From: Aldrovandia affinis
Taxonomy: Eukaryota; Chordata; Actinopteri; Notacanthiformes; Halosauridae
DNA: 64,000 bases
NCBI GenBank assembly: GCA_029706075.1
Contig: JAINUG010000134.1
Span: forward strand, 558,001 to 622,000
Reading direction: 5' to 3'
Shown here: positions 18,286 to 63,264 of the stretch, piece after piece
Layout of the letters: the number at the start of each line of letters is the position of its first letter
How positions within the stretch are numbered: the first letter of the stretch is position 1
Translations under genes and position numbers: made by a program
The notes under the pieces: generated by a model
Seen by the model: the letters and a program-made list of their open reading frames with translations, nothing else
Databases searched by the model: none
What the model was told of the DNA's origin: nothing

Positions 18286-18821
18286 CCCCATAAAAGTCAT
18301 ACTTGTCAAAGGGCAAGTATCTTAGAAAAGATACTTGTCCTTCCTAAAAGTTACTTGTCCTTGGTCAATTCACCTTCCAATTTTCCTGGAAAGTGCGATC
18401 TCTGCTCTCTGAATCATATTTTAGCTGAGTTTTTAGCTGATCTTTGGTTTTAGCCTTTTTAGTGGGGGGTGGACTTGCACCCTCAATAAATCTCCACATC
18501 TTTGAAAATGCGATCACTACGTCATATGTAGTTCAAAGATAGACACGACGGTTAACGTTATTTATTTTCTACACGGATATTTATGTTTGACTTGTGCAGC
18601 GTGTGCTCATGGGACTGTGTAGCAGTGAAGCTCTGACGGGTGCCCGCAGGTGGTGTTAGCGACTAGTGTTCTGACTGTACAGTATATCATAACGTACAGT
18701 CTACTCAGGACTCAAGAGATTTTTCCATTCCCAACTAGAGAGTGGTATGGCAGCTAACGTAATAGCTAGCTAATAATTCCTAGATTTAACCGAGCAGGGA
18801 TGTGGGAATGATTTGTGCTTG

Positions 18822-18979
18822 GACTGTAGCAAGGCCGTAACCATGGAGTCAACATTGGGGGGGACATTTAAAAAAATATATCAGCTAGGCTATATATTGG
18901 GGGGGACATTTTGAGCATATCTGAATATTGGGGGGGATGTGTCCCCAATATATATGGTCGTTTCGGCCTTGGACTGTAG
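18822..18979 (+). mobile_element. 142-bp MITE with 8-bp target duplication (copy A site)
   Basis: The element 18830-18971 has terminal inverted repeats CAAGGCCGTAAC / CAAGGCCGAAAC and internal ATTGGGGGGGACATT-like blocks. It is flanked by GACTGTAG at 18822-18829 and 18972-18979. The corresponding position in copy B (49265-49272, CTACAGTC on the plus strand) is empty. An 8-bp duplication fits the hAT superfamily. Confidence 0.9.
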
Positions 18980-19061
18980 TATGGAGATGAGAAATCACTG
19001 CAGGAAAATCACAGCGATTCCTCAGCCTGGCGGGAGGGCTCACTGAACTGAATATAGACAG

Positions 19062-19225
19062 TAACTAGCTAGCTAGTGTTCACGGATATTGCTTGCTAAT
19101 TCATGGCTTGGTAAGTGATAAATGCATGATCACTTACTAAGCCTTGTGTTAGCAAGCAACTAGCAACAACAGATATCGATATGTCATTGCTCAATGTCCG
19201 TGAACGCTAACGTTAGCTAGCTAAC
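19062..19225. repeat. Imperfect palindrome inside the hAT-like element
   Basis: The arms TTCACGGATATTGCTTGCTA and GGCTTGGTAAGTGAT on the left pair with ATCACTTACTAAGCC and TTAGCAAGCAA plus GTCCGTGAACGCTAA on the right, around a centre at about 19120. The same palindrome exists in copy B (about 49020-49185), so it predates the split of the two copies. It could be a fossil fold-back MITE or a structural part of the element. Confidence 0.75.
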
Positions 19226-19635
19226 TAATTAGCTGGTTCTCGCTGTTGTGTCTATGTGCCATGATCTGTGAAGTTGCTTGACTGCTGCAGAGTCTGGCAT
19301 AGCAACAACAACAAACACGGTGAGCACAGACTGCATGCGAGTGACAATGTGCCGCTTTTCCCAGTTGGAACTTCAGATATATTTTTGAATATCTGTGCAT
19401 GACGTGTTTGTTACGATGTGAGTGTAAAACAGAAATAAGTTGTTTCACACTGATTTAATTGCCTATATGTCTGTGCCTATGTATCCAGGCATCCATGTTG
19501 TTTTGGGGGAATTGTCAAATAACATTGAGAGGGAAATTGAATTTTTATTTACTGGAAATATTAAGGTGAAATTACAGAATCTAAATACACACATATTAGC
19601 ACATACCACACATTAACTAACTCAAATCCACACAA

Positions 19636-26502: not shown

Positions 26503-27603
26503 TCAAACTGCACATGAATAACAGTATGTACAAGTATGCTGCTTACAAATATACTTGCTGCATTTGCTGCAGGTGATGTTGCTCTTTCTCTCTATGTTTG
26601 GAGGACAGCTCTGGCACCGTTTAAGTTTCTTCCCAGCCTCAGGCACAGGTGGAGTAGGGCCAGGTAGAGCAGGCACAGGTGGAGTAGGGCCAGGTAGAGC
26701 AGGCACAGGTGGAGTAGGGCCAGGTAGCACAGGCACAGGTAGAGCAGGCACTGGTGGAGCAGAGTCCTCAGTTTGGAGCTTTCTGACAATGGCTGCAGCA
26801 GCTGTGGGTAGACGTTCTCTGCAGATTATGTGGGGGGTAACAAGAGCTTTTCCCAGTTCTTGAAGGACAATCCTCCTCCTGTAAAGTCTCCCTCTGTTCC
26901 AGTCAGGGTCAACTGTAGTCCATACGACAAACATGTTGTAGGCAGAGACATCAATGATGTTATAAAAGAGGACCAAAGGCCAACGCGCTGTCTTCCTTTT
27001 GCAGCTGTATGTACCTGTCACCTTATCCAAGTTATCCACCCCTCCCTTGTTGGCGTTGTAATCAAGAAAGATTGTAGGTTTCCTGTCATCTCTACTGATC
27101 ACTGCAGCATCATGACGAAGGGTGCTCATCAACAGTACATTTTTCCTCTTTTTCGGTGAGTAAGAAACCACTATGGTGGTGTCTGTGAAGGCAAACTTGG
27201 ATGAGTTCACAGCTCTGTTTTGCATATTCAGCAGCGCACTGGGAAGCTCTGGCTTGTTTTTCCTCACAGTCCCAACCATAGTCAATTTACTTTTCAGCAG
27301 CTCCTGGCCCAGGCTGTAGGAAGTAAAGAAATTGTCGCAGGTGATGTTGTGACCCCTAAGACCTTGGGTCATGTCCAGCACCACTCGCATTCCTTGGTTC
27401 TTCTCCGGGGCTCCTCCAGGTGGTTTCCCTGTGTACACTTGCAGATTCCAAGCATATGATGACTGTGTATCACACGCCACCCATATTTTGATGCCATATT
27501 TACCTGGCTTGTTAGGCATGTACTGTCTGAAGGGACAGCGGCCTTTGAATGGCACAAGACGCTCATCGTTCACGTCGCCTGGGTCTTGTTTCTCGGTTGT
27601 CAA
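26503..27603 (-). pseudogene. piggyBac transposase, catalytic core and Cys-rich domain
   Basis: This 366-codon open stretch covers most of a PGBD4-like DDE_Tnp_1_7 transposase, the enzyme that excises and inserts the element at TTAA. All three positions expected for the catalytic Asp triad are kept: VACDTQSSYAW, ITCDNFFTSY and NKGGVDNLDK. The C-terminus has a Cys/His-rich zinc-binding domain (CQSCPP, CSKCSKYICKQHTC). Between them is an unusual proline-rich linker of tandem 10-residue units PPVPALPGPT, encoded by 30-bp DNA repeats at 26640-26760. The first codon is not a real start: the upstream frame is lost through a small deletion and frame change. Alternative: a domesticated gene, which the flanking breaks argue against. 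Confidence 0.85.
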
Positions 27604-27890
27604 ATCAAATCACGCTGGAGAAAATGTGAAAGGTCTGTAATGACATGGTGGCCCGAAATATCGCCCTCCCAGTCTCCGCATCCCATAGGCTGGCTGTCGA
27701 TTCATCCCTGGACCGGTACACTCCAGCCAGTATGAGCACACCCATATAAGCATGCAGGTGTGTCCCATCCAGCTCCTTCCAGTTGGCACCGTAAACCTGT
27801 ATGCCCTCCATGTTTGTGTTGTCCAGAATAATCCTCTCCACTGACTGTGGTATGAAAAGTTCAAAGGCCGATTTGATGTCATGAACACTT
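27604..27890 (-). pseudogene. piggyBac transposase, N-terminal part of the DDE domain
   Basis: The frame reads DIKSAFELFIPQSVERIILD, NWKELDGTHLHAYMGVLILA and TGRAIFRATMSLQTFHIF, the typical start of the PGBD4-like DDE domain. It then hits TGA where family members have an Arg codon, and about 100 bp of coding sequence appear to be missing before DERLVPFKG of the next part. The upstream edge is set by the solo LTR. Confidence 0.8.
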
Positions 27891-28476
27891 TGTGGCAGCC
27901 CAATGGGCTGCACAAGGAAATGGCTGCCGGGTCCTTCGACACATGGGAGCCAAAACACTACATTTCCCAGCAGGCCACAGAAACACCCGAGCAAAGTCAA
28001 GGCAATGGGACTAACGACCAGCTGAAGGCCATTTCAAGGCCTATTTAAAGGGCTGAATCCCGTCACACTGGGAGAGGAGTAGGAAAGTGTTTGTGAGGAG
28101 TTGGTGAGTGTTTGTAAGAGAGAAAACTGAAGTCGATTGACCAGCCAGTATTTGGAGAGAGAGAGAGAGTGATTGTTGGAGTGTTTTGTGTATGAAAATT
28201 TGATTGTTTGAGGACCCCCCTTTGGATTTTGACAACGGACTGGATTGTGGAACTGACTTGGATTTGGAATTGGAACGGACATTGACAACGAGCTAGGATT
28301 GCAGACTTTGTGTGTTTGTATTCCCCTGAAGACCCCACCCCTTTGTTTTGTGTTGTCAAGAGTTTATTTATTAAATTATCATTTTGGTTTCTGAATACTG
28401 CCTCCTGCTTGTTCTTGAACTTGCCTACGCCCTCTGCAAGGTCCGTGAGTGTCGCCCAACCCCTGGAGACACCACA
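27891..28476 (+). mobile_element. Solo LTR (Gypsy-like) inside the piggyBac transposase
   Basis: A 586-bp insert starts TGTGGCAGCCCAATGGGCTG and ends GGAGACACCACA, a TG...CA pair with inverted ends. It separates PTRFAVTH from DIKSAFELF, which are adjacent in related transposases. Internal phrases such as TTTGAGGACCCCCCTTTGG resemble the second solo LTR at 37.1 kb, so both probably belong to one retrotransposon lineage. I could not find a convincing target duplication. Peptides predicted across it are not genes. Confidence 0.7.
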
Positions 28477-48706: not shown

Positions 48707-49422
48707 TCATTACAGGGGCCCAGATTAGCAGTCATCCTATCGTCTCAGATGACTAAAAATAAAGAAGGACGACCTTCGATTTCCAAGTGATTGTCCTGCT
48801 GACGACTGTGAATTTATGATTTTTTATGATTTTTTATGAGCTAACTGGAACTATTTCTGTTTTACACTCACATCGTAACAAACACGTCATGCACGGATAT
48901 TCAAAAATATTTCAAATGGGAAAAGCGGCACAGTCTGTGCTCACCGCATTTGTTGTTGTTGCTATGCCAGACTCTGCAGCAGTCAAGCAAGTTTGCGGCA
49001 CATAGACAGCGAGAACCAGCTAGTTAGTTAGCTAGCTAACGTTAGTGTTCACGGGCATTGGATATCAATATCTGTTGTTGCTGGTTGCTTGCTAACACAA
49101 GCCTTAGTAAGTGATCATGCATTTATCACTTACCAAGCCTTGAATTAGCAAGCAATATCCGTGAACACTAGCTAGCTAGTTACTGCCTATATTCAGTTCA
49201 GTGAGCCCTCCTGCCAGGCTGAAGAATTGTTGTGATTTTCCTGCAGTGATTTCTCATCTCTGTCCTACAGTCCAAGCACAAATCATTCCCACATCCCTGC
49301 TCGGTTAAATCTAGGAATTATTAGCTAGCTATTACGTTAGCTGCCATACCACACTCTAATTGGGAATGGAAAAATCTCTCTTGTTCGAGTCCCAACTAGA
49401 GTGTAGCCTACGTTAAGATATA

Positions 49423-49591
49423 CTGTACAGCAAGGCCGAAATTACCATATATATTGGGGGGGACACATCCCAATATTCAGATATGCTCAAAATGTCCCCC
49501 CCAATATATAGCCTAGCTGATATAAAAAATATAAATAAATTGATTTGGTCCCCCCCAATGTTGACTCCATGGTTACGGCCTTGCTGTACAG
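49423..49591 (-). mobile_element. 153-bp MITE with 8-bp target duplication (copy B site)
   Basis: The element 49431-49583 is the same MITE as at 18830-18971, with inverted ends CAAGGCCG...CGGCCTTG. It is flanked by CTGTACAG at 49423-49430 and 49584-49591. The matching place in copy A (18675-18682) holds a single CTGTACAG, the empty site. Confidence 0.92.
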
Positions 49592-49604
49592 TCAGAACAC
49601 TAGT

Positions 49605-49956
49605 TGTTAGGTTCACAAATTCAGAATGCCTTTAAAGAGAATAGAGAACACTTGCACCAAATGAGAGACAGAACAATCTGAGAAAATCAAGCAGAGTTTA
49701 TTTAACCCAATGCATTCGGGGTTCAATGTCTCCCTGTCAGACAAAGAACAACTCTTTTCCTGCAGAGCTCACTTTCTTATACACAATCTTTAGCCTCGCC
49801 CATATATCAGTCATAAGACAGTTATTTTACTCTGCCCTTGAGACTGTGGCGGTTAGCTAGCTCACTGCAAAACAGCTCTGTAAAACAGACAGCTTACCGC
49901 CTATGCCCTTTGGCACAGTTCCATGTGCAAGCATGTGAAGTTACTCAGAAACAAAA
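49605..49956 (-). repeat. Retroviral 3' LTR
   Basis: The minus-strand LTR ends ...GTGAACCTAACA at the target duplication and has an AATAAA signal at about 49697-49702. The internal edge is next to a purine-rich tract on the minus strand (AAAAAGGAGGGA at 49957-49968), as expected for the polypurine tract. Bases 49807-49955 are about 97% identical to 62697-62843 by eye. Confidence 0.85.
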
Positions 49957-50090
49957 TCCCTCCTTTTTATGATTTTATCCCATATAGTCATAAAATACTT
50001 TCACATTTTGAACAGCATAGCAAGTTTATTTCAATGCAGAAGCTTAAAATCTTTAAACAAGTTTTGCAAGGCTATGGCAGTATTGTCATA

Positions 50091-50309
50091 GTCTAGAGCA
50101 GGGGTGTCAAACTCATTCCATCGTGGGCCGAGTGTATGCAGGTTTTTGTTGCAACCAGTGCACTACACCAGGTGATTTCACTAATTCGCTTCCTTCTTCA
50201 ACCAAGGAGGGAAACTAATTGAAATCACCTGGTGTAGTGCACTGGTTGCAACAAAAACCTGCATACACTCGGCCCACGATGGAATGAGTTTGACACCCCT
50301 GGTCTAGAG
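50091..50309. mobile_element. Fold-back MITE (hAT-type) with 8-bp duplication
   Basis: The 203-bp element 50099-50301 begins CAGGGGTGTCAAACTCATTC and is an almost perfect inverted repeat around its centre. GTCTAGAG flanks it on both sides (50091-50098, 50302-50309). It interrupts the cytoplasmic tail region of the retroviral env; the env reading resumes beyond it toward 50040. Confidence 0.93.
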
Positions 50310-51004
50310 GATCAATTATCTCTTCATTCCCAGAGTCAGATTGTCCTTCTTCAGAATTTAGGTTGTCATACTCATCAGTCACTAGGTATTTTTGTTGGGC
50401 CAGGGCTAATTTCTTAAGACCTTCCATAGCTTGATCTATGGTTTTACCATCCGCATCGTTATCAGGTATGTAGGTACAACACGCAGTTCCAATTATGTGG
50501 CATGCTCCTCCCTTGGAGGCAGTCATGAGGTCCAGGACCATACGATTTTGAATTGTCATTAATCTAAGTGCAGTTAACTCGTTTTTTATACTCTCGGTTG
50601 CATTCAGTGTGAAATTGATCAATGCACTCAGGCGGTAGTTTATTGTCTCTACCCTTAACATTAATTTGCCCACCCCCATTTGGGGAAAAAGACTAAGAAC
50701 CGCTTTGTTCCCTGTACTCCAAAGTTTGTGATCTTTTGGAACATTACTTCCCCCATATTGCATCATGCTTATCCTCTAAGGATCTTTTTGCACGACCCTG
50801 TGTTTCAGCACTTATTATCCATGTATGGTCAGTCAGCATCACATATGCACAAGTTCCGTGCCACTTCTTAGGCAGAGCTATGTACACATTGTGTCCGCAA
50901 AGCCAGTACCACCCATCCACTGCCCTAGTGCCGTTTTCTGTAGGCGCTAACGTGGAACACCTTGTCCCATTTAAGGGCGTTCCGGTGGTTCTATTCTTAC
51001 TCTA
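50310..51004 (-). pseudogene. env: Retroviral env: end of surface unit and transmembrane unit
   Basis: On the minus strand the end of the surface unit (GWYWLCGHNVYIALPKKWHG) leads to a furin-type RAKR site at about 50783-50794. The frame then shifts, and a 552-bp open stretch (50215-50766) encodes most of the transmembrane unit. This shows the conserved DHKLWSTGNK block, a heptad-rich segment, and the immunosuppressive-like region with a CX6CC disulfide motif (residues 89-97 of the stretch). The last 36 or so codons of that open stretch lie in the fold-back MITE and are not env. The membrane-spanning segment expected between CX6CC and the tail is not obvious. The gene is broken by the frame shift, the L2 insertion upstream and the MITE downstream. 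Confidence 0.85.
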
Positions 51005-54000
51005 GAAAAGTGTTTACCTGTGTTTGTGAACTGACGTGCTGTTTTCCGTCCCGCGTGTTTAGTATTTTTTGGTTTGCTAAAGATTGCCTCGTTAGTTTTT
51101 GACTGATCTCTGTTAGTTATTGACTGATCTCTGTTAGTTATCTGTAGTTTCTAAACTTTGCATAGCTTATTGGTGTTTAATTGCTGGCTATTACTGAATT
51201 AGATTAGCCTTGTTATTCGTTAGTTTCGACAGTTATCCACAATTGTTAGTTTGATTGTAGTGAATTGCAAGCAGTCCTGAGTAAATCCGTGTAATTATCA
51301 CGCTATTTGACTCAGCTGTTTGATCCCTCTTTTAGCTTTGTCAGAGCGATGCTCCCTCCTAGTATGTGCCCGCACCCCATAACAGTCTGCTCTCTCCCAT
51401 TCAGAAGGCGCTTCCAGCGTCGCACCCTCCCGTGACAACGGAATCTCTCCAACCTCTCCTACCCCTCCCTGACCCTTTGTGACAGCTTCACAATCTCAGG
51501 GGGGCTATGGAACTGTCGGTCTGCCGCACAGAAGGCCGACTTCATTTCTGCTTACGCCTCCCTCTTGTCCCTCCAGTTTCTCGCCCTCACCGAGACCTGG
51601 ATCAGCCCTGACAACTCCACTACTCCTGCTGCCCTCTCGTCCGCCTACTCCTTCTCCCACATCCCCCGGCCATCCAGCCGTGGTGGTGGTACAGGTTTGC
51701 TTATCTCTCCCACATGGAAGTTCTCAGTCGTTCCCCTCTCCAACCTGTCTATATCCTCTTTTGAATACCACCCTGTCTCCATCACCTATCCTACTAAACT
51801 CTTTATTGTTGTTGTCTATCGTCCACCAGGGCCCCTGGGATGCTTCCTCGATGAGCTAGACACCCTGCTCAGCTCCTTCCCTGAGGACGGCACCCCGCTG
51901 ATCCTCCTGGGAGACTTCAACATCCACCTAGAGGCTCCCCAGTCTGCTGCCTTCCTACCACTACTCCACTCCTTCGACCTCTCCCTGCAACACTCCCCCC
52001 CAACCCACAAGGCAGGCAACCTCCTAGACCTGATCTTCCTGAGGAACTGCCCCAGCTCCAATCTCATGGTTACCCCCTTGCATACATCTGATCACCATTT
52101 TATTTCCTTCTCCCTCTCCCTTGCCCCCCATCCTCCCTCCCCTCCTCCAACACCATCACTGCCCGTCGTAACCTTCGCTCCCTCTCACCCTCTTCCCTCG
52201 CTCCCATTGTCACTGCTTCCCCCCTTAAAGCATTTTCTAGACTCCCCACTGACACTGCTTCCTCCACCCTAATCTCATCTCTGTCCTCTGCACTTGACTC
52301 TCTCTGTCCTCTTCTCCCCAGACCTGCACGCTCATCCCGTCCTAGTCCCTGGATGTCTGACACCCTGTGCACCTCCCGGGTCAGCCTCCGTGCTGCTGAG
52401 AGGATGTGGGCGAAATCCAGCCACCCATCCGACCTTTCATCCTATCAGTCTCTACTGTCTGTGTTTTCTTCTGCCGTCACTGCCGCTAAGGCAAACTTCT
52501 ATCAAACTAAAATTCAAAACTCTATCTCTAAACCTCGGCAACTGTTCTCTATTTTCTCCTCTCTCCTCAGCACACCTGCTCCCCCACCTCAGTCCCCCTT
52601 CACTGCAGATGACTTTGCTGTTTTCTTCGAGGAGAAAATTGCAGACATCCGCAGCTCCTTTGTGCCCTCCACTGCCTCCCCTCCCTCTGTGCCCTCCACT
52701 CCCTCTGTGCCCTCCACTCCCTCCCCTCCCTCTGTGCCCTCCCCCTGCTTCCCTTCTTTTTCTCCCCTCTCAGACTCTGATATTTCCCACCTCCTCCTCT
52801 CCCACCGCCCTACCACTTGTGCCCTCGACCCTATCCCTTCATCCCTCCTCCAGGCTATCACACCTGACATCCTCCCATTTGTCACCTCCCTTGTGAACTC
52901 CTCCCTGTCCTCTGGTTGTTTCCCCTCGCCCTTCAAAAGGGCCCATATCACCCCTCTGCTGAAAAAACCCACTTTAGACCCCTCAGTCATCCAGAATTAT
53001 CGCCCAGTACCCCTCCTCCCCTTCCTGTCTAAAACCCTCGAAAGAGCAGTATCTAACCAACTCTCTGCTTTCCTCACAGAAAATAACCTGCTGGACCCCC
53101 ACCAGTCCGGCTTCAGACCTGGCCACTCAACAGAAACCGCTCTCCTCTCAGTCAATGAGGCACTCCATACTGCACAAGCCGCCTCCCTCTCCTCCATCCT
53201 GATCTTGCTTGATCTCTCAGCTGCCTTCGACACTGTGGAGCACTCCATCCTCCTGTCCTCCCTGGCAGCAACAGGGATCTGCGGTACAGCCCTCGCCTGG
53301 ATCGATTCCTACCTCTCCGGTCACTCCTTCCAGGTTGCCTGGGCTGGTAAAAAATATCGCCGCCTCGCTCCTCCCCACCGGGGTTCCACAGGGCTCAGTC
53401 CTCGGTCCCCTTCTCTTCTCCCTGTACACCCGCTCCCTTAGCTCTGTAATCTCTGCCCACGGCTTATTTTACCATTGTTATGCTGATGACACTCAACTCT
53501 TTCTCTCCTTCTCCCCATCAGATACTCAGGTCTCTACCCTCATCTCTGCTTGCCTGAGGGACATTCAGAGCTGGGTGGACAGTCACCACCTAAAGCTCAA
53601 CCCAGGTAAAACAGAACTAATCTTCATTCCTGCCCTAAACTCTCCCCACCTTGATTTCTCCATTTCTGTAGGTGACACCTTGGTGATATCATCACCCTGC
53701 GCAAAGAATCTCGGTGTGGTGATGGACAACAGGCTGTCCCTATCAATGAACATTGCAGCGGTAAGCCGGGCATGCAGATTCTTCCTGTATAACATCAGGA
53801 GAATCCATCCCTTCCTTACCACGTACTCTACCCAGCTCCTGGTCCAAGCAATGGTACTGTCCTGCTTGGACTACTGCAACTCACTCCTGGCTGGCCTTCC
53901 CGCATCTGCCATCAGACCCCTGCAACAAATCCAGAATGCTGCAGCCCGTCTGGTCTACAACCTTCCTAAACACTCCCATGTCACCCCCCTGCTCACTACC

Positions 54001-54573
54001 CTCCACTGGCTGCCTGTTATAGCTCGCATCAAATTCAAGACATTGGTCTTAGCATACCAGGCAGTCAAGGGATCAGCCCCAACATACCTCCTCAAGATCT
54101 TCAAACCCTACACACCTGCCAGACCACCTGCCGGTCACGTCTCCTGTCGGTTCTGGCTCCACGATGGTGGAATTACCTTCCTGTGGAAGTCAGAACAGCT
54201 GAGACCCTGGCCACCTTCAAGCGACGACTGAAGACTCACCTCTTCAGGGTGCACCTCTCCCCGTAGTCCGGTTTTTGTTAAACTTAGGGGCATAGTTGCT
54301 TAGTTTTACACGTCTACTTGTTTATGTATTGTATTAGGCTTAGGCATTATTTTCTGCATTGATTGCTTTATTGCTACCATTGAATTGTGGCTACAGATTT
54401 ACCTACAGGGTCCAAGTTTAACTATGTGGTTGCTCCTAGCACCAAGGAACTGTACTTCCCACTAGGGTGGCTTTCAGCTAAACTGTTCTTGACTACGGTT
54501 AACACTTTGTTGTACGTCGCTCTGGATAAGAGCGTCTGCCAAATGCCTGTAATGTAATGTAATGTAATGTAAC
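51005..54573 (+). mobile_element. L2-type LINE, nearly full length, with frameshifts
   Basis: The plus strand carries an APE endonuclease (51565-52272: FLALTETWIS, ILLGDFNIHL, TSDHHFISF), then a reverse transcriptase in two further frames. The first (52353-53441) has NYRPVPLLPFLSKTLERAVS, HQSGFRPGHSTETALL and [14 protein letters not shown]. The second (53209-54231) has [14 protein letters not shown], the intact catalytic [10 protein letters not shown] (53479-53490) and the C-terminal [20 protein letters not shown]. Thus at least two frame changes (about 52,270-52,350 and 53,330-53,440) disable one ORF. The 3' end is CGCTCTGGATAAGAGCGTCT followed by (AATGT)n, the tail also found on SINEs here. 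It sits in the retroviral env in the opposite orientation. Confidence 0.88.
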
Positions 54574-54967
54574 AGCGGGAGTACACTGTCCCATTGCATT
54601 GGGATGTGTCCCCCACCGGGACTGTTCCATTCCCTCGTACACAATTTACAAAGGTCTTATGCGGGGTATATGGTACTACCATAATGGGCGTAATCAACTT
54701 TTGTGGTGAGGTTTGTAATAAACCTTGTCGATCAGTGCAATTTATTCCCATCACTATATTCGTAGCAGTTAGCCTGGTTGTGATTTTGTGGGTTGGGTCA
54801 AAGTATTTAAGTGTTCCTGTATGAGTTGAGAGACCTATAGCACATGTTACAGTCCAGGACACATTTAATCCAATTCCCGGGGGTTGGTCCACAGTCACCC
54901 TTGGTGCTACGGATGATGCAGGTAGATGTGTGCATACGTAGCAGTTGGTCTTGTTTACGCTATGTCT
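54574..54967 (-). pseudogene. env: Retroviral env: surface unit, central part
   Basis: The minus-strand frame has TNCYVCTHLPASS with a CXXC (CYVC) motif, as in surface units of gamma-like retroviruses, several N-glycosylation sites (NKT, NVS, NCT, NGT) and paired cysteines. It lies between two LINE insertions: an RTE-like element upstream and the L2 downstream in env order. The first residues of the open frame (above 54967) and the last ones (below 54574) come from the LINEs, not env. The receptor-binding function is inferred only from position. Confidence 0.75.
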
Positions 54968-57900
54968 CTCTATGTCGTCCTCAGACAAGTCCTCCAGCGG
55001 CGTTTCCAATCATCTCGATCCTCCATGCATCTGGCTAGTTCGCCAGCATTTTCAGCTCCTACATCTGTTGGTGTGGGACGCCCTCGTAATCGATGCCCGT
55101 GTGTTGGTTCCCACAGCACCAGCTTGCTGGCTGGGAGCTCCCGGTGTCTCTGGCAATGACCGGCCAGTCTCATTCTTCTGACTGCTACTTTCTCACTCAG
55201 CCTTGGTAGCCCCCCATACAGATGCCTGTTGGTAACATGCTCGTTCTGGTTGATGTTTAGTACTACACGCAGCATTCTGGTGTAGCACCCATCCAGAGAC
55301 TTCTGTAGGGTGGGCTTCAGGGTCCAGCTCTCACAGCCGTATAGGAGAACGGACTCCACGGTCGCATAGAAGAAGCTTAGCTTGATGTTTCGGGGGACGT
55401 TGGAGTTCCATACACTGGCCATGCCATTCAGAGCCTTCCACGCAAGCGCCTTCCTCACTTTAAGGTCTTGCTCTGATGAGTTGACCCATGAGCCCAGGTA
55501 TTTGAAGTCATTGACTTCCTTCAGAGCAGTGCCTCCTGTTGTCATTAGAGGTGGATGGTCCGGGAGGATGTTGTAGGTGATTACCTCGGTTTTCTTTGCA
55601 TTTAGCCTAAGACCAACCTTGGCACACTCTGTCTCCACTCTGGTCAAGAGCTCCTGTGCCTGCTCCACACGGTCAGATATCAGGCTGATGTCCTCTGCAT
55701 AGTCCAGGTCTGTTAGGACTACAGCAGGGACTCGTCTAGACCTCTGCGGTGTAATAGTGAAGCCAAGTTCCTGCTCCCGTCCACTGATAGCTTGTCTAAG
55801 TGCATAGTCCAAGACTATAATGAAGAGGAAGGGGGCGAGGGTGTCCCCTTGCAGCACCCCCGCCAGGATGTCAAACTCCTCGCTATTGCCATCTGGGGTT
55901 ACTACCTTGGCTCTTGTTCCCGTGTACATGGTCCCTATGGCCCAGAGTAGGTTGGGAGGGACACTGTAAACCTTAAGAATGTTCATCATCACGCCTCTGT
56001 GTATTGAGTCAAAAGCCTTTTTGAAATCAATGAAACACAGCACCGCTGTCAGGTTGTTCTTTTTCACCTCCTCGATGATCCTCCTTAAGGTCAAGATCTG
56101 GGATACAGTGGTTCTCCCCTCTCTAAAGCGACTCTGGTTCTCTCTCAAGTGGGGGTCGATGGCGCCCCTTATCCGGTTCAGTATCATGCGGTTGTACATC
56201 TTTGCAATGATACATGTCAGACTGATGCCACGGTAGTTGTCTGGCTTCGAGAGATCTCCAGATTTAGGCACTGGGATGATGTTAGAGAGGGACCAAATAT
56301 CGGGCTTGTTGTTTTCCATCAGAGCTAGGTTGCAGATCTCCAGGATGATGTCGTCAAGGTCGCAGTTCTTAGGGACCTCTGGGGGAATGCCGTCCGGCCC
56401 AGCACTTTTCCCCTGCTTCAGAGTGGATTTCACTGTGGCAAACTCCCTGAGTGTAAAGGGGCCATCATCAATTTAGAGATTTGTGAGGACTGCAGTTATC
56501 ACTTTCTCGGCTCCATCCACTGTCGGGTGTGTGCCTAGGAGATCCCGGAAGTTGGTGAACCAGGAGGTCACTCTCTCCTCCGGGCTGCAGCCTGCAACCT
56601 GTCCCTCCTTCGACCTCTTGCACCCACTCATCTCATTTATGACCCTCCATGACTCCCCATACTGTTGTTTGCCCTGAGCTGCCTCCACTCTCCGCACCTT
56701 CTCCATCAGCTCCTCCCCCTTGATCTTGTCGTAGGTACTGAAGAGTAGTTGTTTGGCCTCGTTCAGTACTCCACGCCTCTCTGTGGTCCGTTCGCGGGCG
56801 AAGCTTCAGCGTGCCTCCTCCACCTTTGCACGCGCCTGCACGACCTCCGGATGCCTGGACCTTGGGGAGACTCTGATTCTCTCTGTCGTTGGCACGCACT
56901 CCCTAGTTGCCTTCACATTTGCAGCGACAAACCGCTCGTATGCTGTGCTAGGCCCCTCCTCCGTAGCCAGGAGTTGGAAGCGGTTTCTCACCTCCACGGT
57001 GTACCTGGCTTGGAGGTCGGGGCTTCGCGAGAAGGCCTCCCAGTCGTGGTGGATCCTTGGGCTAGGCTTGGGGACCCTTAGGCTCAGTCGCACCCTCGTG
57101 GAAACCACTCGGTGGTCAGAGCCCACAGAGTCGAACGTGCTGTACGACTCTGCGTTTAGGATCGAAGTCCTCCACTTGCGCCTCAGCAGTATGTAGTCTA
57201 GTTGACGTGTCATACTGGTAGCCCGGTCCTGGAAGGTCCATCTCTTGCCCATTCTCTTCCGGAACAAGGTGTTCGCAGCCAGTAGCTCGTGTTCTGTAAG
57301 CAGGGCAGCAAGATGTTCGCCGTTGCGGTTAGTGCTGTCGTGGTACGTGAAGGGTGCATCCTCTGGTCCAAGCCTCGCGTTGAAGTCGCCCAGAATTGCT
57401 AGGAAGTTGTGAGCCGGGCCATCACGGACAGTTGTTCTAAGGTCCTCGTAGAACTTCTCCACTTCCTCGACTGGAGCTACGTTGGTAGGTGAGTACACGA
57501 CCATGATGGTTGTAACTGGGTTTCCATCGAAATCCGCAATAAGGATCCTGTCGGTGTGCTGGTGCACCCTACGGAGAGCCTTTCGTGCCCGAGGACTCAG
57601 CAGTAGCCCCACACCACCTGTTGCAGCCTGGGCCTCGTTTCGCCATGCAGATGAGGTGATGAGCGAGCAATTCCCCACTTTGCAATACACGATCGGGTCA
57701 TGCGCATGCACTCTCCTGTGCTCCTGGACTCCCAGGATCTCCACTCCCCTTTTCTCGGCACAGTGTGCTAGCCCTGCCAGCCTTGCTTCTTCTCTCACTG
57801 TGCTTGCATTGATGGTTCCCATAATAAATGGTCTCCGACAACGCAAGAGTGCATTAGACGGTGTGCTGTGGTCAGACTTGACCCTCCCTTCCGGGTTTGG

Positions 57901-58615
57901 GGTCTCGTCGTCATGCTGCTTCCCGTTGGGGGGACCAGCTCCACCGTCTGCCGCATGATTCCTGTGGACTCCCGCCACTGGAAGTATAGGATTTGCAATG
58001 ATTGGATTCTCCATACTGTTGAACTTTACAATGTGCGTAATATAAGGACTGTGGGGCACAACTCCTCGCAGCCCTACTCTGGCCGTTTTGGGCATAAGCC
58101 CTTATCCGCCCTTTACTCCAAACCTTCAGGTGGCATACGGTCCGGAGTCAGGTGCGAGCAACACCTGTGGTTTTTGTTCGGAGTGACCTTCTCCTAGATG
58201 GGTTGCCATTCAAGGCTGGGCCCCATCTGCCCTTGCTATTGGCCCATAGCTGGGACAGTGGTTGAGAGACGCCAGGGCGTATCCACGCACCGGTGGGCCT
58301 GCACGCCTTCTCTCTGGGGCCCACTGCTGCTCCGAGATCCCCTACAGTTTAGCCTGGGACCGCAAGGTACCCAGTTACCGTGTGTGGCCACGAGGAGGCA
58401 CTGCAGGAGTCTTGGCGGTGGAGAGGCTGTGTACCGGCAGGAGGAGGCTTACGCACTCGGCTTCTCTTTTCACCCCCTGCAAAGAGGGCTAGCCGGCGGC
58501 AATAGCTGAAAGCAGAGAGTAGCAAGCAGAAGCAGCATGCAGCATGCACTACAAGCACCACTACCACAGTTCTACTGCACAGGCACATCACACACGCCCT
58601 ATGTGCAAGCACACA
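54968..58615 (-). mobile_element. RTE-like LINE with one long ORF broken by two stops
   Basis: On the minus strand one reading frame runs from 58095 to 54970. The N-terminal APE endonuclease has TINASTVREEARL, LGVQEHRRVH, FLAILGDFNARL and SVGSDHRVVS. After a TGA at 56806-56808 and a TAA at 56473-56475, all in the same frame, comes the reverse transcriptase: GKSAGPDGIPPEV, NYRGISLTCI, FIDFKKAFDSIHRGV, GVLQGDTLAPFLF and the catalytic box as YAED instead of YADD (about 55691-55702). The C-terminus has a Cys/His region and ends at 54970. There is no frameshift. The 5' UTR extends to about 58615. TATGT near both junctions may be the target duplication. RTE or RTE-X is my best clade guess. Confidence 0.85.
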
Positions 58616-58804
58616 CACACTATGTGCTGTGCGATTAGCATACCGCCACCATGCATTAGTTGCATATGCATGTGGTGGTTTGTCATTAGCATCTTCATAT
58701 TCGTGTGCTTTTACAAATCTCTTCCCTCTTATCGGTGTTCCGACTACCGTGATTATCATCAATATGGTCAAAGACCCCACCGCCCGCCACTGGAGGTTCG
58801 CCAT
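58616..58804 (-). pseudogene. env: Retroviral env: leader and start of surface unit
   Basis: The Met at 58804 opens a 63-codon stretch with a hydrophobic core (SLTILMIITVVGTP), a plausible signal peptide, then a basic and Tyr/Trp-rich start of the surface unit. It ends where the RTE-like LINE begins; the surface unit resumes beyond that LINE near 54967. Confidence 0.65.
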
Positions 58805-58939
58805 AGCTGTGTCTAAATCTCAGTAAGAGGGTTGTTTCCTTCACCGGTTTTGAGACAGGTGTGTTCTATATTTCACACCTCCCTTTGTAGCCAGACTTCT
58901 CCCTTCTGAGCACAACTCTTTTAGGTACCTACTCACCCT

Positions 58940-59539
58940 TTGTTACCTTTTTACAGTGGGACAGATGCACCCAGGTGGATCGCTCAGCAATCTTTACTGC
59001 TGTTGGAGTTGTTAGTAGCACCTGATACGGCCCTTTCCACTTTGGTTGATGCCACGCCTTGTGCCTTGGATCTTTAATCAGTACCCAGTCCCTGACCTGC
59101 AGCTTTTCTTCTGGTATTCCAGCTGTAAGAGTTTACACATTTCTTGTTTATTAGATAACATTTTCTTCATATAGTCTGCCAATGTGGGATTATCCTCTGA
59201 TGTTTTATCTCCAAATTGAGGTAGGTGATAGGCTTTTCCCATCTAGGTATTATTTCTCTACAAATTAGTTTTGCCACAGTTTGTGCATCAATGTTTGAGG
59301 TAGGGTATGCTTCTACCCAACCTGAGAATGGGTCAATCGTTACTAAGCAGCTCTTTTTCCCCTCACTTGGTGTGAGGTGGATGAAATCCATCATCCAAGA
59401 TTCAAATGGTCCTGAGGGAAGAGGTATGTTCCCTGGTGTTGGTTTAAGACCCCCCTGTGGGTTGTTCCGTAAGTATGCTAAACACCTTTTACAAAAAAAC
59501 ATTTTGAAGGTTGTAAATCCAAACGTTGTATAACGTTTG
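58940..59539 (-). pseudogene. pol: Retroviral pol: integrase core and C-terminal domain
   Basis: Minus strand. From the piggyBac junction the text starts with the two cysteines of the integrase zinc finger (CKRCLAYL). The core follows with SWMMDFIHLTPSEG (first catalytic Asp) and VTIDPFSGWVEAYPT, up to IPRWEKP. Sequence with the second Asp and the Glu is missing or unreadable near 59110-59220. The C-terminal part at about 58955-59110 has [20 protein letters not shown] and [16 protein letters not shown], a GPY/F-type domain. The enzyme would insert proviral DNA; this copy is dead. Confidence 0.82.
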
Positions 59540-61370
59540 TTAACCCCCTGAGGTCGACGGGAGCGGCGCCGCTCCCAGCAGCAATAAAAGTATATTACTA
59601 TTTCTAACTTCGCGATATTTTATCATACACACGCGACAAAAACATTGACAGAAACCTTAGAATCGCGACTTTCCGATTTGAGCACTGGCAAATCAAATGG
59701 GATTTTTAAATTAGGTTAATTAGACCAAAAGTAAACCTTGTTTTTACTCTGTTTTTTACCTTTTAGTACCGTCCCCCTTCTATTGACATGGTAACTAGGT
59801 GCGAGTTTCGGGGAGGTGTGGGGGGGAGGGGCGTGGGGGCCATGTGTGAAAACGCCGGCGTAAACAAACACAAACTGTCCCGACAATTTGAAGCAAGATT
59901 TTATACAGACATACAATTTTATTCAAGATGGAAAGATTTTCTGCGCTGCAGTGTTTGAGAGCATCGATGGAAAGCGACGAAGACAATAACTGACGAAGAG
60001 TAAGTAACTATATTTGATCTGCCATGTTATCAAATACTCGTATATATATTCAATATATGAATTCCGTGTGTTAAATTGCAGCGTAAACAATGTCCCGACA
60101 TTATATCGGATCTTGTCTGTGTTTACGGTTGCGAGCTGCCAGCAACAGACGGTGTATGCTGATATTTATTTTATTTACCATATTTTCAAATACTCGTGGG
60201 AAAAGTATTCGACTGCTGCGAATAATTAACGGGAGGATATTTAACCAGCTGGCATTCTGTTTCGGCGCTTGGACATTATCTAGCTTAGCTTGATAATACC
60301 TATTGTGATTAATGTTTCTTGCCTCTCGAGAACTTGTTTGTTCGTGTGCTTGTTGTTGTTTAGATTCCCAGCGTTTAGTTTATACCACGTTTTTGGATAC
60401 GTGGATTTACCTGTTTACTTTGATTTGTTTGTTCCTGTTCGTTGGTTTTGTTTTGTTTGTCTTCCGTGTCTTCGCAGACACGGATTTTGCTTTCGTTTTC
60501 CGACAGACGTTTAACGATAAATATCTTAAACCCAGAAAACGGGCTACTTTTGATCATGTGCCTGTGTCCACTGCCAAACACTCTGGATGTTGGCAAATTG
60601 GCTTCTGTTGGTTGCAATAAATGTGTACTCTGCAAGATGTCGGGAAACAGCGGTTTGTGACGTTCCCTTGTGTCTACAGTTGACCAGAAACTGTTTTGAG
60701 AAGTGGCACCAAAGACTGTGAAAGAACAAATTGTCTCACCATGTTTTAATTTGAATGTTTTGTATATAGTTTGTTTTCAATGAATCTTCCCAAATGAAAA
60801 AAAAACTTTCTGCATGGCTCACTGACTATTGCTTACTCTGATGGCTTTTCTCTTTGTCTGGCGGCCTTTGAGAGAGAGATGGCCCATCTGACAGATTTTA
60901 CAGGTGTGGACAAGCCTCAGGTGTGGATCATGAATATTCTTGAAATTAGCATATAGCCCTCCCACAGCCTGAAATAAATGTGACCAGTTCTGATAAAAAC
61001 AGGTTTTTAGCTATTTAGATCTCAGATGTGCTAAACTATTTTCACACCCTTACATAAACAAGACCTTGATGAACAAACGCATATTGGCAAAACAATTCGT
61101 CACTATAGTTTAGTGTGTGCTTTCACAACATTTGTGACGGCAGAAAAATTTACTCTTTATAACTTGTGTGTTTGTAGATCTATTTACAAGCTGCATATGA
61201 TACTGACCACACTATTGATGGCATATAAATGTAGCTGTGATTGTCCTTCAAATAAAAATATCAAACACTTTGGAGTAAGTGTGTGTTAAGTTGATGAAAT
61301 TGAGATAAATATCAGACCATGCCAAAATCAAAAACCTCCTCTAAGCTTAGCACGGACCTCAGAGGGTTAA
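59540..61370 (+). mobile_element. piggyBac-like element with TTAA duplication
   Basis: The 1823-bp element 59544-61366 is flanked by TTAA at 59540-59543 and 61367-61370. The ends are CCCCCTGAGGTC and, inverted, CCCTCTGAGGTC. The plus strand near 60530-60710 holds a decayed Cys-rich tail resembling that of piggyBac transposases (CVLCKMSGNSG and a later NCFEKWH-like phrase in another frame). No DDE domain is visible, so it is non-autonomous. It interrupts the zinc finger of the retroviral integrase exactly between its His pair and its Cys pair. Confidence 0.88.
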
Positions 61371-62690
61371 CCATAGCTACCATCCCTCCTTTTGAGACAT
61401 GGCATATGCCATGACTCAACTCTGCAGCTATGGTAAACAAAGATCTCGGTAATACAAGTTTGTTTTCTGGGCCCACCCACAGGCCAGTTTCGTTCTCAGT
61501 ACATTTTTGGTTGCCCCACATCCTTTTCTCTGGTACCCCCGCTTCATGTTGCATGTCTCTCAAGAGAGTGTAATCGAGGGTGATGCAATCAATTTCTTTG
61601 AACACTCCCTGAGTGTCTGCAGCTGCTTCTTTTGCAGCAGAGTCTGCGAATGCATTCCCCAGGGACACCTCATCTGTTCCTTTCGTATGTGCTGCACATT
61701 TACATATAGCCAGTGTTTTGGGTTTCTGTAATGCTCTCATAAGGGCTATTATTTCAGCAGCTTGTGCTGAGTAGTGAGGTGGTAATGCTTTTGCTTCTAT
61801 GACTTCAGTCTGAGTGCAGACCGCTAAGATTTACCCCTTTTTCATTCTTTTTGCAGGATCCATCCACATAGAATGTTACTTCTGCGTCAAGAATGGGTGT
61901 GTCCATTAACCCGGGGCGTGCTGCCACAGACCTAGATGTTTCAGCTACACAATCGTGAGGATCTCCATCCTCAGCGGTTGGCAGCAAGGTAGCCGGATTA
62001 AGTGTGGTGCATCTTACAATTGTTAGATTAGGAGTTGTTAGTAGAGTCGCCATACAGCTCAGCTGTCTTGCTGGTGACAGGAATGTATGTTTTGTTTGCA
62101 GTAGTAATACAGAAACTACATGTGGTACCATCAGTGTCAATGGTTGGTATAACACTATGGTTTGTGAGGCTTTTACTGCTAATGCTGCTGCTTCTACAGC
62201 TTGTAGACAGCATGGCAGTCCTCGTGCTACAGGATCCAGTTTTGTGGAGTAATAAGCAATTGGTCTTTGCTTACCTCCAAATGTTTGCATTAGGACTGAC
62301 GACATGAATCCCCCACGGCTGTCTACCATCTGTATGAAGGGTTTAGCTGGGTCAGGATGTGCCAACACCTGAGAGCTCACCATGACCTGTTTTACCTGTT
62401 CAAAGGCTTCGTTGGCTTCAGGAGTCCATTTGATTGGATCTCAAGCCTCCATTGTTTCGCTGTAAATACAATCTAACAGTGGCTGTGTCAATTGTGCAGA
62501 AAATTGATCGGCAGAAATGTATCATTCCTAGGAAAGACATCATCTGTTTTTTTGTTTTAGGCTTTGGGGCCTGCAGTATCGCTGTTTTCCTATCCGGTAA
62601 CAAGGCTCGGCCTTGAGCTGAGATAGCGTGTCCCAGATATTTTACTTCTGGTACACACCACTGCAGCTTCCCCTTGCTTCCCCTTGAATT
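61371..62690 (-). pseudogene. pol: Retroviral pol: RT connection, RNase H, integrase N-terminus
   Basis: Minus strand. Just inside the truncated LTR the text gives the RT connection (VKYLGHAIS, KTKKQMMSFLGMIHFCRS), with stops at about 62418-62440. The frame 61805-62383 continues with QTFGGKQRPIAYYSTKLDPV and, near its end, VTFYVDGSCKKNEKG with a catalytic RNase H Asp. After a frame break the frame below 61740 has SLGNAFADSAAKEAA (another RNase H Asp) and LSHGICHVSKGGM, the His half of the integrase zinc finger. The RT catalytic YxDD part is absent because of the 5' deletion. Confidence 0.85.
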
Positions 62691-62696
62691 TGGAGG

Positions 62697-62870
62697 TCAG
62701 TCATAAGACAGTTATTTTACTCTGCCCTTGAGACTGTGGCGGTTAGCTAGCTCACTGCAAAACAGCTCTGTAAAACAGACAGCTTGCCGCCTATACCCTT
62801 TGGGACAGTTCCATGTGCAAGCATGTGAAGTTATTCAGAAACAATTTTCAAACACAGAATTTCTCTATCA
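62697..62870 (-). repeat. Retroviral 5' LTR, truncated
   Basis: It matches the U3 part of the 3' LTR (49807-49955), and its outer end reads TGATAGAGAAATTCTG on the minus strand next to the target duplication. The R-U5 part is missing at the inner side. The outer 26 bp have no counterpart in the 3' LTR. Confidence 0.8.
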
Positions 62871-63264
62871 CTAGTCACTAATGCCACCTGCGGGCACCCG
62901 TCAGAGCTTCACTGCTACACAGTCCCATGAACACACGCTGCACAAGTCAAACATAAATATCCGTGTAGAAAAGAAATAACGTTAACCGTCGTGTCTATCT
63001 TTGGGCTACATACAACATAGTGATTGCATTTTCAAAGATGTGGAGATTTATTGAGGGTGCAAGTCCACCCCCCACTAAAAAGGCTAAAACCATATAAGAT
63101 CAGCTAAAAACTCGATGAAAATATGATTCAGAGAGCAGAGATCACACTTTCCAGGAAAATTGGAAGGTGAATAGGCCAAGGATAAGGAACTTTTAGGAAG
63201 GACAAGTATGTTTTCTAAGATACTTGCCCTTTGACTTTTACCCTAATCTGGGCCCCTGTCATTA

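What the first reader, a model, noticed from the sequence alone, without database searches (positions are those of the whole stretch)
48707..63264. Three-level nested transposon stack with readable order of events
A hAT-like element (16-bp terminal repeats, TCATTA on both sides) contains a MITE and a provirus (CTAGT duplication). The provirus contains a fold-back MITE (GTCTAGAG), an L2 LINE, an RTE-like LINE and a TTAA-flanked piggyBac-like element. Five classes of mobile DNA expanded a ~1.1-kb element to 14.5 kb. The exact duplications give a relative timeline, and the intact copy A outside acts as a reference.
Basis: partly seen in the sequence, partly recalled or inferred. Interest (0 to 1): 0.75.

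Follow-up and report, generated by a model that had tools for sequence, protein, structure and literature searches.

The report
Nested jumping genes in fish DNA
A short jumping gene in a fish genome was hit by a virus-like element that was itself hit four times by other jumping genes; the stack is real, but it is an ordinary kind of genomic layering.

Summary
The stack is real. A ~1.1-kb hAT-like element (48713-63258, 16-bp ends, TCATTA duplication) holds a MITE (49431-49583) and a 13.3-kb endogenous retrovirus (49605-62870, CTAGT duplication). The retrovirus holds a fold-back MITE, a UnaL2-type L2, an RTE-like LINE and a TTAA-flanked piggyBac-like element. Empty sites in the same genome support every step except the outermost: 37 of 39 other hAT copies show the provirus site uninterrupted; other proviruses lack the fold-back MITE (11 of 11), the L2 (10 of 11), the RTE (6 of 11, others not scorable) and the piggyBac (11 of 16).

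Three claims fail. Copy A is not intact: it lacks both ends. Its MITE is a separate insertion. The L2 has no usable duplication. Nesting orders hAT, then provirus, then four mutually unordered inserts; the MITE beside the provirus is not ordered. Divergence makes the hAT roughly three times older than the provirus (1.3-9.6).

Unexpected: the side MITE's family has 90 exact 157-bp copies in the assembly, a very recent burst. Overall, a new example of a well-known phenomenon.

The parts
48707..48712 (.). TCATTA, left target duplication of the hAT-like element
48713..63258 (.). hAT-like non-autonomous element B (about 1.1 kb of its own sequence, 14,546 bp with inserts), 16-bp terminal inverted repeats
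   Evidence: about 1.1-kb full-length relatives with the same ends
49423..49430 (.). CTGTACAG, left duplication of the side MITE
49431..49583 (.). side MITE (CAAGGCCG...CGGCCTTG); 0 substitutions in 153 sites and one 4-bp gap against the 157-bp family form
   Evidence: 90 exact copies of the family form
49584..49591 (.). CTGTACAG, right duplication of the side MITE
49600..49604 (.). CTAGT, left duplication of the provirus
   Evidence: single copy in A at 18663-18667
49605..62870 (-). endogenous retrovirus, internally deleted, carrying four later inserts
49605..49954 (-). 3' LTR; lacks 26 bp at its inner end that the other LTR keeps
50099..50301 (.). fold-back MITE, duplication GTCTAGAG (50091-50098 / 50302-50309); arms 89 nt, 99% complementary (the reported arms include part of the duplication)
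   Evidence: flanks abut in 11 of 11 other proviruses
50310..51000 (-). env remnant (TLV_coat match in its transmembrane part, 22.6 bits against cut-off 22.5)
   Evidence: 39 other copies at 95-98%
51001..54572 (+). L2 LINE of UnaL2 type, about 3.6 kb, (TGTAA)n tail, no target duplication
   Evidence: UnaL2 3' stem at 54499-54552; tail; endonuclease and RT domains; boundaries
54573..54965 (-). env remnant between L2 and RTE (no Pfam match; assigned by position and by relatives); includes 9-bp duplication 54957-54965
54966..58616 (-). RTE-like LINE, about 3.65 kb; endonuclease and RT in one frame with two internal stops
58617..58819 (-). probable env start remnant (no Pfam match; assigned by position); duplication 58617-58625
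58929..59543 (-). integrase remnant (MLVIN_C; rve just under its cut-off)
59544..61366 (.). piggyBac-like element, TTAA both sides, ends CCCCCTGAGGTC / GACCTCAGAGGG; no transposase domain found
   Evidence: 4-bp overlap at empty sites; Pfam
61371..62696 (-). RNase H region and, by reading, end of reverse transcriptase, joined directly to the truncated 5' LTR
62697..62870 (-). 5' LTR remnant (outer 174 bp)
   Evidence: 4 mismatches in 148 bp against the 3' LTR
62871..62875 (.). CTAGT, right duplication of the provirus
63259..63264 (.). TCATTA, right target duplication of the hAT-like element
18291..19437 (-). copy A of the hAT-like element, truncated at both ends
18830..18971 (.). MITE in copy A, TSD GACTGTAG 18822-18829 / 18972-18979; independent of the MITE in B

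Best explanation
This is a nested mobile-element stack built by ordinary, separate transposition events. (1) A ~1.1-kb non-autonomous hAT-like element inserted with a 6-bp duplication. (2) A gamma-type endogenous retrovirus integrated into it with a 5-bp duplication. (3) Later, in unknown mutual order, a fold-back hAT-type MITE, a UnaL2-type L2, an RTE-like LINE and a piggyBac-like element inserted into the provirus; a deletion also removed the inner 5' LTR through the front of pol. (4) A 157-bp MITE of a very recently amplified family inserted beside it, its duplication ending 8 bp from the provirus duplication, probably late. Shown: boundaries, duplications, empty sites for every insertion except the outermost. 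Inferred: the enzymes responsible, the deletion's timing, and the place of step 4 in the order.
For: One alignment runs across the provirus site in A and in 37 of 39 other hAT copies, and across B's MITE site in A and 38 of 39; B itself fails both, as it should. B's two flanks are equally diverged from a 12-copy majority (31/724 and 16/383), as expected for halves of one copy. In 11 other proviruses the fold-back flanks abut in 11, the L2 flanks meet with one shared base in 10, and the RTE flanks overlap by 9 bp in 6. The piggyBac flanks overlap by 4 bp in 11 of 16 distinct places (9 directly, 2 by extrapolation from hit ends). Of 23 hAT copies with both ends found, duplications are 6 bp in 11, 5 bp in 5, 8 bp in 2, 3 bp in 1, none in 4. 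B differs from the majority at 47/1107 sites, the LTR pair at 4/148; age ratio median 3.0, 95% 1.26-9.61. Side MITE: 0 substitutions in 153.
Against: No empty site was obtained for the outermost hAT insertion; the query did not complete. The L2 has no target duplication. hAT membership rests on ends, duplication length and a short coding start, with no transposase domain match. The LTR comparison covers 148 bp only. Five of 11 proviruses could not be scored for the RTE, and 5 of 16 places for the piggyBac, because flank hits were missing. Two of 39 hAT copies (L004, L049) gave no alignment across the provirus site. Assembly error cannot be excluded from the assembly alone. The late date of the side MITE is not significant against the provirus age (Poisson P about 0.13, my arithmetic).
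Confidence: 0.95

Rival explanations
1. The MITE in A and the MITE in B descend from one insertion in their common ancestor, so A is a true reference for the order of events.
For: Same MITE family and same relative orientation in both copies.
Against: Insertion points differ by about 150 bp, duplications differ (GACTGTAG and CTGTACAG), and each copy has the other's site uninterrupted. The two MITEs differ by 13 of 141 sites plus gaps. A third hAT copy (L028) has the MITE at yet another site with duplication GCTGCCAT.
Confidence: 0.01
2. The stack is an assembly chimera that places unrelated repeats next to each other.
For: Dense repeats are where assemblies fail; reads were not available.
Against: Five of the six insertions inside the hAT-like element carry target duplications, and the two halves of B are equally diverged from the family. 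Chimeric joins would not produce this.
Confidence: 0.03
3. The central part of this hAT-like element is a preferred landing zone: three MITE insertions and one provirus fall within about 180 bp.
For: Positions about 553, 628, 711 and 730 of a 1.1-kb element.
Against: Four events, noticed after the fact; the search query contained the MITE, so L028 was favoured. A rough chance for four of four is about 1.5% before any correction (my arithmetic).
Confidence: 0.1

Closest known systems
hAT5 / hAT6 groups of hAT transposons (Kapitonov and Jurka 2007, as cited in PMC12730594; passages seen)
   Same: 5- and 6-bp target duplications; short terminal repeats beginning CAGGG (the latter recalled)
   Different: This family is non-autonomous as seen here and mixes 5 and 6 bp; no transposase domain was found
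Gamma-type endogenous retroviruses of fish (name recalled)
   Same: LTR TG...CA, MLV-type integrase C-terminus, TLV_coat-type env; some relatives show a proline-tRNA-like primer site beside the LTR (letters, identity recalled)
   Different: This copy is internally deleted; its 5-bp duplication is the minority in its family (4 bp in 17, 5 bp in 2, 3 bp in 1, none in 7 of 27 measured LTRs)
UnaL2 LINE of eel (Rfam RF00436)
   Same: 3' stem above gathering score and TGTAA tail
   Different: Broken reading frames; inserted without a real duplication
Nested-element chronologies (REANNOTATE, PMC2672092; abstract and outline seen)
   Same: Same logic: nesting order plus LTR dating
   Different: One locus worked through with natural empty sites

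Membership tests
hAT superfamily (hAT5/hAT6) | 5- or 6-bp target duplications | tested here: met
   16 of 23 copies with both ends have 5 or 6 bp; 2 have 8, 1 has 3, 4 have none
hAT superfamily (hAT5/hAT6) | conserved short terminal inverted repeats | tested here: met
hAT superfamily (hAT5/hAT6) | hAT transposase in an autonomous relative | tested here: inconclusive
   A coding start like MWRFIEGASPPPTKKAKT is recognisable in 12 of 14 aligned copies, usually with stops soon after; no domain search was run on it; likeness to ZNF862/hAT starts is recalled only
gamma-type endogenous retrovirus | LTR pair with TG...CA ends and target duplication | tested here: met
   one LTR is truncated
gamma-type endogenous retrovirus | integrase, RNase H and env domains | tested here: met
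   MLVIN_C 3.1e-15, RT_RNaseH_2 8.4e-17, TLV_coat 5.2e-05 (0.1 bit over cut-off); rve 3.8e-07 and RNase_H 0.0069 are under their cut-offs; two env-region pieces and the 58349-58819 piece had no match
L2 / UnaL2 | UnaL2 3' stem and TGTAA repeats | tested here: met
   62.2 bits against gathering 55
RTE-like LINE | endonuclease and RT in one frame | tested here: met
   one frame with two internal stops
RTE-like LINE | RTE clade by phylogeny | not tested
piggyBac | TTAA target and CCC-starting inverted ends | tested here: met
piggyBac | DDE_Tnp_1_7 transposase | tested here: not met
   11 of 14 frames of 60 aa or more inside the element were scanned; none matched it, the only listing being SH2_2 at E 0.08, under its cut-off. 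Filed only as piggyBac-like, probably non-autonomous
hAT-type MITE (side MITE) | short, inverted ends, 8-bp duplications | tested here: met
   9 of 10 fetched copies have an 8-bp duplication; A, B and L028 too

The most novel reading that the evidence does not exclude
The 157-bp MITE beside the provirus belongs to a family that is still moving in this fish, so that many of its 90 identical copies, and perhaps the slightly shortened one in this stack, are polymorphic between individuals. That would be an active vertebrate MITE with a readable present-day source.
Probability: 0.4. Interest if true: 0.55.

Novelty: new member of a known kind. Interest (0 to 1): 0.33.

Why it matters
Nested stacks fix the relative order of mobile-element families in a genome. 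Here the order is backed by natural empty sites and not by boundaries alone. The practical lead is a young MITE family with 90 exact copies next to a young retrovirus lineage, which makes current activity directly testable by genotyping.

Tried and rejected
Rejected: A as an intact reference (both ends missing); one shared MITE insertion in A and B (reciprocal empty sites); a usable L2 duplication. My first empty-site count used short patterns with 3 substitutions (36, 36, 34 and 34 of 39); on checking it proved too loose, since L028 passed for its own filled site, so I replaced it with alignments that must span each site by 15 bases on both sides, with A, B and L028 as controls that came out as expected. 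The palindrome inside the hAT family was not pursued. The RTE was not classified by tree. Copy searches for the RTE, L2 and fold-back MITE were not asked for; the one for the piggyBac-like element did not complete, as did those for the right hAT flank and the mismatch-tolerant MITE count. Eight paper searches were run; one search found none, the others gave listings; PMC12730594 was read as passages, PMC2672092 as abstract and outline. None of the listed titles concerns this locus, which is weak evidence of absence.
Full report
What is there. The window is fish DNA, probably from an eel-like fish: four UnaL2 LINE 3' stems and a tRNA-like match followed by such a stem were found, and the closest named match of the RTE-like reverse transcriptase is from Synaphobranchus kaupii, 81% (that it is an eel is recalled; the single best hit, 84%, is unnamed). 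The host assembly is held without a name, 1.22 Gb in 2,576 contigs, with the window at C380:558001-622000.

The outer element. The 16-bp inverted ends and the TCATTA duplication are exact. In the same genome other copies share those ends and many measure about 1.1 kb (shorter and longer ones occur). Of 39 other copies fetched, 23 had both ends recognisable; their duplications are 6 bp in 11, 5 bp in 5, 8 bp in 2, 3 bp in 1 and none in 4 (where copies are mostly listed on both strands; recounted per copy). This fits the hAT5/hAT6 groups as described in PMC12730594 (passages), but no transposase domain was found, so 'hAT-like' is the right name. The copies come from the 40 scored of 2,270 first-look candidates, so they are not a random sample.

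Copy A. A matches both flanks of B, with CTAGT single at 18663-18667 where B has the provirus. A is not intact: it starts 18 bp inside one end and stops about 138 bp short of the other. A also carries the same MITE family, at 18830-18971, about 150 bp away from B's site, with another duplication; each copy has the other's site uninterrupted. A third copy, L028, has the MITE at a third site. An alignment spans the provirus site in 37 of 39 other copies, B's MITE site in 38, A's MITE site in 39 and L028's MITE site in 35 (L028 itself among the 4 that fail); B fails for its own MITE and provirus, A for its own MITE. Only L028 of the 39 has a MITE hit, and none has an LTR hit. An earlier, looser pattern count is withdrawn.

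The provirus. It lies on the minus strand at 49605-62870. Pieces match RT-RNase H, MLV-type integrase C-terminus, TLV_coat env (barely over its cut-off) and integrase core (just below it); other env-region pieces had no Pfam match and are assigned by position and by relatives. The 3' LTR is 350 bp and lacks 26 bp that relatives have; the 5' LTR keeps only its outer 174 bp and runs straight into the end of the reverse transcriptase (that end is by my reading, the 92-residue piece had no Pfam match). Since reverse transcription makes both LTRs alike, the truncation is most likely a deletion after integration (inference). Thirty-nine other copies of an env piece are 95-98% identical in their main aligned part (40 of 208 candidates scored), so the lineage is young. 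LTRs of the family mostly have 4-bp duplications: 17 of 27 measured, 5 bp in 2, 3 bp in 1, none in 7; 4 of 31 gave no pair of ends. Most of the 7 look like LTRs next to internal proviral sequence, where none is expected (my reading of the flanks). The 5 bp here is a minority form, but A's empty site shows it plainly.

The inner inserts. Flank probes, never joined, were placed on other natural proviruses. Fold-back MITE: flanks abut in 11 of 11. L2: flanks meet with one shared base in 10 of 11, so the L2 entered without a real duplication; the eleventh (L063) is altered there. RTE: flanks overlap by exactly 9 bp in 6 of 11, reckoned from the hit ends; in the other 5 one or both flanks gave no hit. 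piggyBac-like: flanks overlap by 4 bp, TTAA, in 11 of 16 distinct places, 9 directly and 2 by extrapolation; the remaining 5 lacked one or both flank hits (19 loci, three places fetched twice). The piggyBac-like element shows no transposase domain in 11 of its 14 frames of 60 residues or more.

Order and age. Nesting proves hAT before provirus before the four inner inserts. It does not order the inner inserts among themselves, nor the side MITE against the provirus. B differs from a 12-copy majority at 47 of 1,107 sites, equally on its two flanks (31/724 and 16/383), which supports one element split in two. The LTR pair differs at 4 of 148. Taking half of that per lineage, the hAT insertion is about 3.0 times older than the provirus, 95% interval 1.26-9.61. 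The majority is built from copies chosen for likeness to B, so this is rough.

The side MITE. The family form is 157 bp. Nine of ten fetched copies are identical over all 157 bp, each with its own 8-bp duplication; the tenth (L114) is 152 bp with no substitution and no duplication found. These ten were picked from the best-scoring 40 of 1,319 candidates. An exact search of the whole assembly found 90 copies, 44 forward and 46 reverse, and none of the backwards control. The MITE in B has no substitution in 153 sites and one 4-bp gap; the one in A has 6 in 142 and three gaps; L028's has 1 in 157. B's MITE is clearly younger than its host element (Poisson P about 0.0015 under the hAT age) and probably younger than the provirus, though not significantly (P about 0.13); both are my arithmetic. 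A count with mismatches allowed, which would date the burst, did not complete.

Verdict. The reference copy and the timeline were overstated. Dating by nesting is an established method (REANNOTATE, PMC2672092, abstract and outline), so the locus is a well-supported example of a known phenomenon; the recent MITE burst is the part worth following.

Noticed in passing
49431-49583 and genome-wide: 157-bp hAT-type MITE with 90 exact copies in the assembly: very recent amplification.
   Followed up: partly
49605-62870 and LTR loci L030-L040, L086-L105: Endogenous retrovirus family with mostly 4-bp but sometimes 5-bp target duplications (17 and 2 of 27 measured).
   Followed up: partly
50310-51000 and L054-L064: Young proviral lineage: 39 other env pieces at 95-98% identity among 40 scored of 208 candidates, one of them about 33 kb to the left of the window on the same contig (C380:525026).
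   Followed up: partly
54966-58616: RTE-like RT is 81% identical to a Synaphobranchus kaupii protein, 82% (over 77% of the query) to one of Pogonophryne albipinna and 74% to one of Leuciscus chuanchicus. Patchy high identity, possible horizontal transfer.
   Followed up: no
26503-28033: A separate piggyBac-type transposase (DDE_Tnp_1_7) in two overlapping frames on the minus strand.
   Followed up: no
427-569: tRNA-like sequence followed by a UnaL2 3' stem: probably a tRNA-derived SINE with an L2 tail.
   Followed up: no
49029-49178 and 19066-19223: Palindromic stretch shared by both hAT copies, possibly an older fold-back insertion in the family ancestor.
   Followed up: no
L005 2257-3398: Another hAT copy interrupted by about 750 bp with an apparent 8-bp duplication.
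   Followed up: no
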